From assembly GCF_014201835.1 (NCBI RefSeq), contig NZ_JACHFH010000024.1, positions 1 through 45,439 on the forward strand: a DNA stretch of 45,439 nucleotides, read 5' to 3'. This DNA comes from Pectinatus brassicae (lineage in GTDB: Bacteria; Bacillota; Negativicutes; Selenomonadales; Selenomonadaceae). Both the position numbers and the translations under genes were made by a program. Of the stretch, positions 1-6,015 are shown piece by piece. Positions within the stretch are counted from its first letter, which is position 1, and every line of letters begins with the position of its first letter. Below the pieces are notes generated by a model. It saw only the letters and a list, made by a program, of their open reading frames with translations. It had not been told where the DNA came from and searched no databases.

Positions 1-109
1 CAGTATTGGATTGGTCTTTTGCCAATCTCTATATGCATATTTCTATACATACTGACTAGTTTGGTCGCCTAACTCACGACTTAAGTCACGAGTGTGCGGC
101 TCCCATTTA
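1..109 (-). mobile_element. 5' end of a second IStron copy, inserted in uvrA (runs off window)
   Basis: These 109 bases match 5871-5979, the 5' end of the complete element in pgi, with only a few differences. On the minus strand the boundary reads uvrA...TTTGAT then TAAATGGGAGCC, exactly as in pgi. The element therefore has the same target and the same sense orientation relative to its host gene. Only the intron 5' end is visible; whether the copy is complete cannot be told from the window. Confidence 0.85.
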
Positions 110-2743: not shown

Positions 2744-4174
2744 TTATTTATTTTGTGCTTTTACTTCCTGAAGTTTTGGTCCCATAATACGTTTATAGGC
2801 TTCAACGCCTGGCTGATTAAATGCATCAACATTAGCCAATTCGCCTTCATAAGCTATAGACATAGCCAACATATAAAGCAGCTGTCCAAGATTAAATGCA
2901 TCCAGTTTAGGCATGCTGAACAACGCATTAAAACGTTTATTAGAAGTAAGCGCATCAGCATTGGACTGACGGGCAACTTCCAAAGCCTGACCCATTGTTA
3001 CACCGGAAATATCGGATAATTTCTGCGCTTCAGGGAAAGCATTAGGAATTGTTATATCATTATCCCATTCATTGATACGGATAAATTGAACAATTTTATT
3101 AAGCTTGCCTTCCTGATGCTGCTGGGTCTGAGAATGCATATCACGTGTACCCAATGCTACGATTGGTGTACGACCATAGCAAACTTCTTTATCATCTTTA
3201 TCAAACTGTTTGCCCAAAGATTCAGCAAGCAGCTGGATATACCACATGGAAACAGATTCCAAATAATCACCGTATGGCATCATTACTTCTTCATCGCGTC
3301 CATATTTTTCAGCTGCAATATATTTAAGTGCTGCATTAAGCATAGCCGGATTCTGCCAAATATCATCATTTTGGCAAGCAATATCCATCTGCTTAGCACC
3401 TTCCAAAAATGCTTCAATATCAAAACCGGTAACAGCTGCTAATACCAAACCTACTTCACAGAAAATAGTAAAACGTCCACCAATACCATCTGGTACAGCA
3501 AAGCTTTCCCAATTATTTTCCATAGCCATTTTCTTAAGTAAGGTTGGTTTCTTTTCATTAGGATCGGTAACAGCAACAATTTCTATTTCCACATTAGGAT
3601 TATCTTTTAAAGCATTATAAATAACCATAAAGTTAGACATGGTATCAAGTGTACCACCTGACTTGGAAATACAAATAAGCATTACTGTATATTTGTGCGG
3701 ATTCTTTTTATCATGATTCATTGCCATATCAGCAGCATGGCTTATATAATCAATTAAATCTTTTGTGCTGCGCGGGTCAATATTATTGCCGCTAAAGAAC
3801 ACTTTTGGATAGCCATTGCGTTCTTCTTTAGTTTTTAAATTCCAATAACTGCCGCATTGTACATCAAACAGTACTTTATTGCCTAAGAATGAGCCGCCAA
3901 TACCAAGTGAAACAACAGCATCAACACGATTACGTGCTGATTCACCAAATTTTTTCAAGCGGGCAATTGATTCCGGGGAATTAAGATTACCTTCTTCAAT
4001 ATAAGGTAATTGGCTGAATAATACTTTTTCTGGGGTACCATCTTTTGATAAATGCGCGTGGATAACACCGGTCTTACGCATTACATCCATAGCTTCATGC
4101 GCTTTTTTTATCTCTGGCATCAATTCTTCTACATCATTTTTTGTTACACCATTATCACCAAAAAGATTGTCATA
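2744..4174 (-). CDS. pgi: Glucose-6-phosphate isomerase, 3' exon (residues 13-488)
   Basis: The enzyme interconverts glucose-6-P and fructose-6-P. This exon carries the isomerase hallmarks, including LGIGGSFLGNK, the SKSGGTLDT phosphate-binding loop, and GIGGRFTIF. A methionine at 4123 could start an isolated open frame, but coding sequence clearly continues upstream through YDNLFGDNGVTKNDVEEL to base 4174. There it meets the IStron 3' end. Joined to 5980-6015, the frame is continuous and reads GFEFD-YDNLFG, resembling the FDYS start of Bacillus isomerases. The gene is the last of the manB-galU-pgi operon. Without splicing the product would lack its start and upstream residues. Confidence 0.93.
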   Translation of the reverse strand, partial: YDNLFGDNGVTKNDVEELMPEIKKAHEAMDVMRKTGVIHAHLSKDGTPEKVLFSQLPYIEEGNLNSPESIARLKKFGESARNRVDAVVSLGIGGSFLGNKVLFDVQCGSYWNLKTKEERNGYPKVFFSGNNIDPRSTKDLIDYISHAADMAMNHDKKNPHKYTVMLICISKSGGTLDTMSNFMVIYNALKDNPNVEIEIVAVTDPNEKKPTLLKKMAMENNWESFAVPDGIGGRFTIFCEVGLVLAAVTGFDIEAFLEGAKQMDIACQNDDIWQNPAMLNAALKYIAAEKYGRDEEVMMPYGDYLESVSMWYIQLLAESLGKQFDKDDKEVCYGRTPIVALGTRDMHSQTQQHQEGKLNKIVQFIRINEWDNDITIPNAFPEAQKLSDISGVTMGQALEVARQSNADALTSNKRFNALFSMPKLDAFNLGQLLYMLAMSIAYEGELANVDAFNQPGVEAYKRIMGPKLQEVKAQNK

Positions 4175-4300
4175 CTGAACCTCCCACGACTAAAGTCGCG
4201 GGGTTCCTGCTTCACAGATAGTTGCGCAAAAAACACGTCTTACATTATCTCCACAGGCTATCCCCGTAGTTCCTACGGTTCTTATATATGTTATTACACT
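4175..4300 (-). ncRNA. Probable omega-RNA scaffold / IS right end
   Basis: The segment from the tnpB stop to the element's 3' end is non-coding. It ends in a strong hairpin (4181-4202) followed by TTCAG. In IS605 elements this region is the TnpB guide RNA, with the guide read from flanking DNA. Here the guide would be pgi sequence starting TATGACAATC (from 4174 downward), and the matching TAM would be TTGAT/TTTGAT. The 5' limit of the RNA is not visible; the assignment follows family knowledge. Confidence 0.65.
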
Positions 4301-5403
4301 GCTGTGTTTAAAATTCTTAATCCTTCATTGCGAATGTTTATAGCGGCATTTATGTCTCTGTCGTGATGCGATTTGCATTCAGGACATTCCCAATGTCTTA
4401 TAGTAATGTCTTTTATTTCTTTATTTTGATAACCACAATTATGACAAATCTGACTTGATGGATAGAATTTATCTATTTGCATTATTTCTTTGCCATACCA
4501 CTGAGCTTTATATTTTAGCTGGCGGATAAATTCTGACCAACTGGCATCTATAATACTACGGGCAAGTTTGTGGTTTTTCAGCATGTTATTTACTTGTAAG
4601 TCTTCTAAGCAGATAACATCATAGTTTTCTATAAGTTTGAGCGAGAGTTTATGCAGCATATCTTTTCGCTGATTTGCAATACGTGCCTGTAGTCTGGCCA
4701 CTTTGATTCTTGCTTTATTTTTGTTTGCGCTGCCCTTTGTTTTTCGGGACAAGCGTCTTTGCAGTTTGGCAAGTTTTTCCAGTGACTGTTTGAGGTATTT
4801 ATGACGGGGATATTTATCGCCATCGGATGTAATTGCAAATTCTTTTAAGCCAAGGTCGATACCGACATAGTTGTCAGTTCGTTTAAAAACAGGTTTTTTT
4901 ACTTCGGTGCAACATAGAGATACAAAGTATTTACCATCGGGCGTTTGTGATATTACAGCGTTTAATATTCTGCCCTGTGGTATTTGTTTGTCTCTTATTT
5001 TTACTTTACCCAGCTTGGGAAGTTTTATCTTTGTTCCCAAAAATTCAATGTTGCCATTAGTAAAGTTTGTCTTGTAAGATTTATGCCTGTTCTTTTTTGA
5101 CTTGAATTTAGGAAAGCCAGTATTTTTACGCTTAAAGAAATTCTGATAGGCCGTATCGAGGTCTTTTAACGAGTTTTGTAGGGAACATTTATCCGGCTCT
5201 TTCAGCCAGATGTTCGCTTTTTTTAACTGCGTTAAATTTCTTGAACACTTGGAAAATGTAAGTGTTGTTTTATCATCTTGATATGCTTTAATTCGCATAG
5301 CGAGATAGTGGTTAAAGACATATCTTACACAGCCAAATGTTTTTTGTATCAGTATTTCCTGTATTTTGTTGGGATATATCCTAAATTTGAAGGCTTTTTC
5401 CAT
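4294..5403 (-). CDS. tnpB: TnpB RNA-guided nuclease of the IStron
   Basis: This is a 369-residue TnpB (OrfB_IS605), the family ancestral to Cas12. An N-terminal OrfB helix-turn-helix domain ([13 protein letters not shown]...) precedes the RuvC fold. All catalytic acidic residues are present: D183 in [11 protein letters not shown]267 in ICLEDLQ, and D350 in [12 protein letters not shown]. The zinc ribbon cysteines C320/C323 and C340/C343 are intact, so the nuclease looks active. In related elements TnpB cuts the empty donor site and promotes element retention, and is not itself the transposase. The start ATG at 5403 lies about 180 bases downstream of the intron core. No TnpA gene is nearby. 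Confidence 0.93.
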
Positions 5404-5579
5404 AACGTACTCACTTTTCTTTTCATCTTTACAAGATTATCGCCTGATTACCTTAAAAATAACATGCAGGCTTTAGAAAAGCAAGTTTTTCATAGTAACA
5501 TATATAAGAATCGTAAGTTCTTTTTTAGTCGTATTGGGGAGGTGTCGTTCACACAGGTTCGCTGCTTCCTATGCGGTTC

Positions 5580-5979
5580 TCTTATGAACTCCTTTATGTT
5601 TCCATAAAGCACAGACTATATCTTGTCCTTCGGCATTATCCGTTAAGGTCTGCCCACTTCCGGTCGCTTGACCGTACTTCCCTCAAGAGGAATAGTCGTT
5701 GGGGATTCTCCTGTTCGGAGCTTTCCTGCTGATTGTCCATTTTCTTAGTGTTTAGGGTTTAACCTTGCACCATACAGTATATTTTTTCTACTTTCGTCGC
5801 CGTCACGTTTGAGTTTATTTCATCTTAGCGTTGTGGCTATACTGTCTTTAGGAGTTTCCAGCATTTCAAGCAGTATTGGATTGGTTTTTTGCCAATCTCT
5901 ATATGCATATTTCTATACATACTGACTAGTTTGGTCGCCTAACTCACGAGCAAAGTCACGAGTGTGCGGCTCCCATTTA
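5580..5979 (-). ncRNA. Group I intron ribozyme core (IA-type features)
   Basis: Read on the minus strand, the conserved group I segments occur in order. AATCAGCAGGAAAGCTCC is at 5717-5734 and CAACGACTA at 5693-5701. Two peripheral stems follow (TTCCTC/GAGGGAA and CGGTC/GACCG), then GTGGGCAGACC, then AAGATATAGTC at 5614-5624. GACTAT near 5695 can pair with ATAGTC at 5614-5619 as the P7 helix. No intron homing endonuclease is present; tnpB takes the downstream space. I could not identify P1 and the internal guide with certainty. Confidence 0.88.
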
Positions 5980-6015
5980 ATCAAATTCAAATCCTGATTC
6001 TAGCTTTAAACTCAT
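5980..6015 (-). CDS. pgi: Glucose-6-phosphate isomerase, 5' exon (residues 1-12)
   Basis: ATG at 6015 is preceded by AAGAAGAGGGG, a good Shine-Dalgarno 10 bases away. Twelve codons encode MSLKLESGFEFD and the sequence then enters the IStron after TTTGAT. The exon is 36 bases, a multiple of three, and is in frame with the exon ending at 4174. It lies 34 bases after galU in the operon. Unspliced mRNA would give a 12-residue peptide, because the element begins with TAA in this frame. Confidence 0.88.

What the first reader, a model, noticed from the sequence alone, without database searches (positions are those of the whole stretch)
4175..5979. An IStron (group I intron plus TnpB) sits inside pgi
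The element carries both a group I ribozyme core (P7 pair GACTAT/ATAGTC, AAGATATAGTC, AATCAGCAGGAAAGCTCC) and an intact TnpB with an IS605 right end. IStrons are best known from Clostridium/Clostridioides (CdISt1). Here one interrupts a central glycolytic gene of a probable Negativicute. The element lacks TnpA. Group membership follows from named motifs; activity is inferred.
Basis: partly seen in the sequence, partly recalled or inferred. Interest (0 to 1): 0.88.

Follow-up and report, generated by a model that had tools for sequence, protein, structure and literature searches.

The report
Self-splicing IStron transposon inside pgi
A transposon that carries its own self-splicing ribozyme sits in the only gene for a key sugar-metabolism enzyme; it is one of about 25 related copies in this bacterium, and most copies whose surroundings could be read lie in genes in the direction in which splicing could remove them.

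Summary
Window 4175-5979 (minus) is a complete 1805-bp IStron after TTGAT, between codons 12 and 13 of pgi. It has a group I intron core (Rfam RF00028, 69.2 bits), an intact TnpB, IS605-type end hairpins and a 3' TCAG end. TnpA is deleted but for a short 3' remnant. pgi is single-copy, and four sister species hold it uninterrupted at that point. It fits the published group A IStrons, already known from Negativicutes (MfISt1 of Megamonas; PMC4227781), so kind and host class are not new. The genome shows 23 left and 25 right ends. Of 22 copies whose flanks I could pair, 21 lie in genes on the sense strand (background 59%), among them pgi, uppS, tsaB, ahcY and an amber-containing mtmB. A sister genome has a TnpA-bearing copy beside TnpA-less ones; there, 8 of 10 copies with a complete intron lie in genes with frame kept, while copies without one mostly lie outside genes. 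I read this as a selection footprint of splicing in vivo. Splicing itself is not shown.

The parts
5980..6015 (-). pgi exon 1: 12 codons (MSLKLESGFEFD), ending in the target TTGAT (5980-5984)
4175..5979 (-). complete IStron, 1805 bp, starts TAAATGGGAG, ends GGAGGTTCAG
   Evidence: the same ends in 23 left-end and 25 right-end matches in the genome, window copy included
5942..5963 (-). left-end imperfect hairpin (IS605-type subterminal palindrome)
   Evidence: stem changes on both sides in relatives, GAC/GTC to GAT/ATC, read by eye
5922..5929 (-). internal guide sequence CTAGTCAG, can pair with the 5' exon UUGAU (P1 with a U-G pair at the splice site)
   Evidence: read by eye, TAGTCAG present in all 10 elements printed
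5592..5926 (-). group I intron core
   Evidence: Rfam RF00028, 69.2 bits, gathering 50
5541..5550 (-). GAACGACACC, containing the GAACGA motif after which the IS part begins in published IStrons
   Evidence: motif from PMC4227781 section 14
5408..5423 (-). remnant of the 3' end of tnpA (last codons and stop), shared with an intact tnpA copy in a sister genome
   Evidence: read by eye
4294..5403 (-). tnpB, 369 aa, RNA-guided endonuclease family, with GIDLG 181, LEDL 266, CHNC 320, CPEC 340 and HDRD 347
4175..4293 (-). right end: covarying hairpins, candidate omega-RNA scaffold; the adjoining pgi bases would be the guide (inference)
4180..4203 (-). right-end hairpin CCCCGCGACTTTAGTCGTGGGAGG
2744..4174 (-). 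pgi exon 2 (476 codons), glucose-6-phosphate isomerase
1..109 (-). left end of a second IStron copy, cut by the contig end, inserted in uvrA after ...TSIFD
   Evidence: joined uvrA flanks are spanned by UvrA models

Best explanation
It is a group A IStron: a group I intron with an IS200/IS605-type tnpB unit in its 3' part. It transposed as single-stranded DNA into TTGAT of pgi, probably driven in trans by a TnpA from another copy (inferred). In pgi mRNA the intron folds, pairs its guide sequence with the 5' exon UUGAU, removes all 1805 nt and rejoins codon 12 to codon 13, so that PGI is made (inferred from structure, exact frame, single-copy status and the insertion pattern of the copies). TnpB with the right-end RNA would cut the empty TTGAT-pgi allele and so favour keeping the element (inferred from known TnpB biology).
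For: Rfam match over the whole model. TnpB above NCBIfam cut-off, 530.8 against 425. Joined exons in frame and collinear with four sister PGIs. Single PGI match in the genome. Of 22 paired copies, 21 are intragenic and sense (16 phase 0, 5 phase 2) and 1 antisense; TTGAT sites in a 320-kb sample are sense in 869 of 1482; P 1.3e-4, or 6.6e-3 when 21 is set against all 25 right ends. In G004, 8 of 10 copies with a complete intron and both ends lie in genes with frame kept; of copies without one, most lie outside genes. tnpB dN/dS 0.09-0.20 in six comparisons. Right-end RNA: 11 of 25 predicted pairs change on both sides in at least one of 8 sequences.
Against: No RNA data: splicing, TnpB cutting and transposition are all unshown. 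One G000 copy is antisense; two relative copies are intergenic (L165 in G004, L185 in G043); one is sense but exact splicing would not keep the frame (L181); one G004 copy with the intron but no right end is intergenic (L174). The contrast with intron-less copies is not clean: open frames run into two of them (L173, 186 codons; L175, 331 codons). Phase 0 is not enriched beyond the coding frame of TTGAT (16 of 21, expected 86%). One left end and three right ends stay unpaired, and the L010/L028 pair rests on continuity alone. The intron part is no more conserved than the rest between the two complete copies (13 of 57 differences in the first 450 of 1805 bases). No IStron-type TnpA was found in this genome's assembled contigs.
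Confidence: 0.86

Rival explanations
1. The intron no longer splices here. pgi is a fresh loss-of-function allele, or a shortened PGI starts at an internal codon such as TTG 4123 (lacking about 29 residues).
For: No RNA data. An in-frame internal start exists downstream of the element. The insertion is absent from the four sister genomes, so it may be recent.
Against: The ribozyme core scores 69.2 bits, like the two other intron cores scored in this genome (70.3 and 67.8). The paired copies favour sense positions in genes, some of them usually essential (essentiality recalled). The four sister PGIs keep the N-terminus.
Confidence: 0.08
2. The sense-gene bias reflects insertion preference (lagging-strand single-stranded target, TTGAT-rich coding strand), not selection by splicing.
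For: TTGAT is itself enriched on coding strands (869 sense, 398 antisense of 1482). IS200/IS605 TnpA acts on the lagging strand (PMC3984707, passage). Two copies without a complete intron also abut open frames.
Against: The observed bias exceeds the TTGAT background (P 1.3e-4 to 6.6e-3 in G000). In G004, genic 8 of 11 with the intron against 2 of 11 without on the harshest count, P 0.03.
Confidence: 0.17
3. Intact pgi is supplied by precise DNA excision in part of the population rather than by RNA splicing.
For: IS605-type ends; other TnpA genes are present in the genome.
Against: No IStron-type TnpA in the assembled contigs; a complete group I core would then have no use for the host.
Confidence: 0.03

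Closest known systems
MfISt1, group A IStron of Megamonas funiformis (PMC4227781)
   Same: Same host family, TTGAT target, TCAG end, TnpB with TnpA deleted, size 1839 against 1805. G042, whose chromosome length equals that of M. funiformis JCM 14723, carries copies of 1794-1841 bp.
   Different: About 70% nucleotide and 67-69% TnpB identity to the G042 copies; about 25 copies here against 1 listed in 2014; G042 itself has at least 5. MfISt1's published letters were not compared.
CdISt1 of Clostridioides difficile (PMC4227781)
   Same: Group A, TTGAT target, IA2-type intron with IS200/IS605 ORFs, up to 24 copies, ORF A often lost.
   Different: Different host class; 2213 bp in its longest form. 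No direct sequence comparison made here.
ISDra2/IS8301 TnpB (PDB 8bf8, 8h1j; identified as ISDra2 from recall)
   Same: Closest natural TnpB with a solved structure (E 1.4e-109); ISDra2 shares the TTGAT target (PMC4227781, passage).
   Different: ISDra2 has no intron (recalled); here the TnpB unit is nested in a ribozyme.

Membership tests
IStron (group A) | group I intron core | tested here: met
   RF00028 69.2 bits, gathering 50
IStron (group A) | IA2 class: two hairpins P7.1 and P7.2 | tested here: met
   TTCCTCTTGAGGGAA and CGGTC-AAGC-GACCG follow GACTAT; the second becomes CAGCC-AAGC-GGCTG in G004. By eye; class features from PMC4227781
IStron (group A) | IS part placed after a GAACGA-type motif | tested here: met
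   5541-5550
IStron (group A) | insertion after TTGAT/ATTAT/TTTAT, 3' end TCAG, no target duplication | tested here: met
   TTGAT in all 23 left ends found by a pattern that includes TTGAT but allows 3 mismatches; right ends
IStron (group A) | ORF B of IS200/IS605 type | tested here: met
   NF038281 530.8 bits, cut-off 425
IStron (group A) | ORF A (TnpA); optional, truncated or missing in many published members | tested here: not met
   only a 3' remnant in the window; intact in one G004 copy
IStron (group A) | self-splicing | not testable with these tools
   inferred only
TnpB RNA-guided nuclease | RuvC motifs and zinc finger | tested here: met
   GIDLG 181, LEDL 266, CHNC 320, CPEC 340, HDRD 347; PF07282, PF01385. 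Which residues are catalytic is recalled
TnpB RNA-guided nuclease | structured omega-RNA at the right end | tested here: inconclusive
   covarying hairpins, z -3.24; Rfam matches there only below gathering score
TnpB RNA-guided nuclease | guided DNA cleavage | not testable with these tools
   none

The most novel reading that the evidence does not exclude
This bacterium has become dependent on ribozyme splicing for normal expression of some twenty chromosomal genes at once, several usually essential (pgi, uppS, tsaB, ahcY), with TnpB holding each copy in place by cutting the restored allele: an addiction of a whole genome to a selfish intron.
Probability: 0.3. Interest if true: 0.65.

Novelty: new member of a known kind. 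Interest (0 to 1): 0.42.

Why it matters
Bacterial group I introns mostly sit in tRNA and rRNA genes (PMC3984707, passage). Here about twenty copies lie in protein genes of one cell, which makes the conflict between splicing (harmless to the host) and TnpB guide-RNA production (good for the transposon; recalled from a 2024 paper not read here) testable at many natural sites. The sense bias is a footprint of splicing readable from sequence alone. A sister genome with a TnpA-bearing copy beside TnpA-less copies with like ends reopens mobilisation in trans, which the 2014 survey thought unlikely. The counts also suggest that the 'in-frame' preference reported there may, for TTGAT elements, come from the coding frame of TTGAT itself.

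Tried and rejected
Trans mobilisation by the other TnpA genes of this genome: L079/L081 belong to an intronless IS605-type element with a different left-end sequence; L079 and L080 are 34% and 33% identical to the TnpA of the G004 IStron copy; possible, not supported. Phase-0 selection: not needed, since 746 of 869 sense TTGAT sites are phase 0 anyway and the third phase holds a TGA stop. First pairing of L036 with L014 was wrong and was replaced by L036/L056 and L053/L014 on protein grounds. The first script for sister PGI printed nothing on that point, redone. One BLAST script printed nothing, probably through an unsupported option, redone. TnpB of G042/G043 was missed by my motif filter, so dN/dS covers G000 and G004 only. 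RAGATH-18 and Ref70 matches at the right end are below their gathering scores and are not claimed. The 2024 Science paper on IStron splicing against guide RNA could not be read; I know it only from recall and from reference lists.

Full report
OBSERVATION. On the minus strand, pgi starts with ATG at 6015, reads 12 codons to ...GAATTTGAT (5980), is interrupted by TAAATGGGAG...GGAGGTTCAG (5979 to 4175), and resumes with TATGACAATC. Cmscan gives one match above gathering in the 45-kb window: group I intron, 5592-5926 minus, 69.2 bits, full model length. TnpB (4294-5403, 369 aa) is intact and above the cut-off of NF038281 (530.8 against 425); its best natural relatives among solved structures are TnpB entries 8bf8 and 8h1j. 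No TnpA ORF lies in the element.

WHY IT SHOULD SPLICE. Joined exons read MSLKLESGFEFD|YDNLFGDNG and align without a gap to PGI of four sister genomes, where the site is uninterrupted. One PF00342 match exists in this genome. The guide sequence CTAGTCAG can pair with UUGAU of the exon, and the element ends in G (read by eye). Phase-0 insertion gives GAT TAA, a stop right at the junction, as in most published IStrons (PMC4227781 section 20 part 1).

THE GENOME. A DNA search gave 41 matches, with 40 of 97 first-look candidates scored, so I used end patterns: 23 left ends, all with TTGAT, and 25 right ends. Many lie at contig ends, so the assembly breaks at copies, and the inside of those copies is not seen. 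I paired left and right flanks by protein continuity: 22 pairs, 21 sense intragenic (16 phase 0, 5 phase 2) and 1 antisense in an amino-acid permease. Of the 22, 19 were tested with family models. For 16 a model spans the junction: UvrA, RecN, UppS, TsaB, MotA, CysW, AhcY and a glycyl-radical activase; MtmB, nitroreductase, Fe-ADH, class III aminotransferase, two LacI-type regulators, HsdR and the permease. For PGI the model starts after the junction but the sister alignment covers it; the ABC-transporter model starts just past the junction; the metallo-beta-lactamase-like protein (my reading) had no match. Three pairs were not tested: an ABC-F-like one, a dynamin-like one and L010/L028, the last resting on continuity alone. 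Left end L039 and right ends L013, L022 and L059 stay unpaired.

BACKGROUND. In 16 stretches of 20 kb, 1482 TTGAT sites (both strands) divide into 746 sense phase 0, 123 sense phase 2, 398 antisense and 215 intergenic (ORFs of 100 aa or more taken as genes). Sense is 58.6%. P for 21 of 22 is 1.3e-4; for 21 of 25, counting unpaired right ends as failures, 6.6e-3. Among genic sites only, sense is 68.6%, P 2.8e-3. Pairing by protein favours genic copies, hence the second figure. Phase is not skewed beyond background (16 of 21 phase 0, P 0.17).

RELATIVES. In the genus, 5 genomes are held; G000 and G004 match the element, G001 to G003 do not. In G004 (2 contigs) I examined 10 copies with complete intron and both ends: 8 sense in genes with frame kept, 1 sense near a gene's end with frame not kept (L181), 1 intergenic (L165). 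I also examined 12 partial copies. Ten lie outside genes or just beside them: L169, L170, L171, L172, L177, L178, L180, L182, L183, and L174, which keeps the intron but has no right end. Into the other two an open frame runs from the left: L173 (186 codons) and L175 (331 codons; left end and 5' part of the intron missing); these may truncate genes. Fisher P is 7e-4 for 8 of 10 against 0 of 10, the count I first made with L173 as outside and L174, L175 left out; 0.0075 for 8 of 11 against 1 of 10; and 0.03 for 8 of 11 against 2 of 11. Other weak partial matches (such as 1195980, 1128902, 1553311, 202967) were not examined for context.

In G043, 9 of 10 examined copies are sense in an ORF and 1 intergenic (L185); in G042, 5 of 5 (two with only about 6 residues upstream of the junction); the one of G019 is in an ORF. 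Only copies found through TnpB were examined there; at least one more intron in G043 was not. Pooled over G000, G004, G043 and G042: 43 of 47, or 43 of 50 with unpaired ends against, P 6e-7 and 3e-5, using the G000 background for all; alone, G004 (P 0.15), G043 (0.04) and G042 (0.07) are weak. Of 10 relative junctions tested, 9 are spanned by a family model, among them Cmk, PyrF, UvrB, CCA transferase, KdsC and RfaE, the aldo-keto one weakly; the asparaginase-like one had none. G042's chromosome length, 2,522,577, equals that published for M. funiformis JCM 14723 (PMC7163012 seen in the search listing with abstract only), the species of MfISt1. RF00028 rings in 27 of 189 genomes of the family, 13 above cut-off, with strict filters.

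MOBILITY PARTS. One G004 copy (L109) carries an intact 138-aa TnpA of IS200/IS605 type (144.7 bits, cut-off 55) upstream of TnpB; G004 also has TnpA-less copies with like ends. The window copy keeps the last codons of that gene, so it is a deletion form. The own genome has three Y1 matches; the two complete ones are 33-34% identical to the G004 TnpA and the third is a partial near-copy of the first. Unassembled copies cannot be excluded. tnpB is under purifying selection (dN/dS 0.09-0.20 in six comparisons). The right-end RNA has 25 predicted pairs, 11 with changes on both sides among 8 sequences, and folds better than most shuffles (z -3.24, 2 of 200 as good), as expected for an omega-RNA; this is not proof.

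NOVELTY. It meets every testable defining feature of group A IStrons except the optional TnpA. The survey PMC4227781 (abstract, sections 14 and 15, section 20 part 1 of 2, and passages seen; supplement not seen) lists Negativicute members, usually 1-6 copies per strain except up to 24 in C. difficile, 58% of insertions intragenic and 54% of these in-frame. Its main text does not use 'orientation', 'antisense', 'same strand' or 'sense strand'. The listings shown by my searches (most capped, open-licence library only) held no paper on IStrons in Selenomonadaceae other than that survey. So: a new member of a known kind, with a genome-scale insertion pattern that points to splicing. Essentiality of uppS, tsaB and the like is recalled, not tested. 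Activity remains inferred.

Noticed in passing
window 1-109 (minus): The window begins inside a second IStron copy, which splits uvrA; the downstream part of uvrA is on contig C6 (L004).
   Followed up: yes
G000 C26 start (L053) and C54 start (L014): An IStron interrupts mtmB, a monomethylamine methyltransferase gene with an in-frame amber codon (pyrrolysine by family knowledge); a PylS match lies on contig C54, the contig of the downstream exon. A gene that would need both splicing and amber recoding.
   Followed up: partly
L065 1516-4098: A Clostridia MAG copy has about 1 kb of extra sequence, with other ORFs, between intron and tnpB.
   Followed up: no
L177, L183, L172 (G004): Short intron-less derivatives of about 140-320 bp with pieces of both element ends, like MITEs, in the sister genome, outside genes.
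   Followed up: partly
L181 (G004:C1:2096000-2101500): IStron near the end of a small ThiS-like gene (my reading) where exact splicing would not keep the frame; perhaps another 3' splice site or a dead gene.
   Followed up: partly
G072:C132:3346-3578: The strongest group I intron in the family survey (91 bits) lies in a genome not listed among the TnpB matches; context not examined.
   Followed up: no
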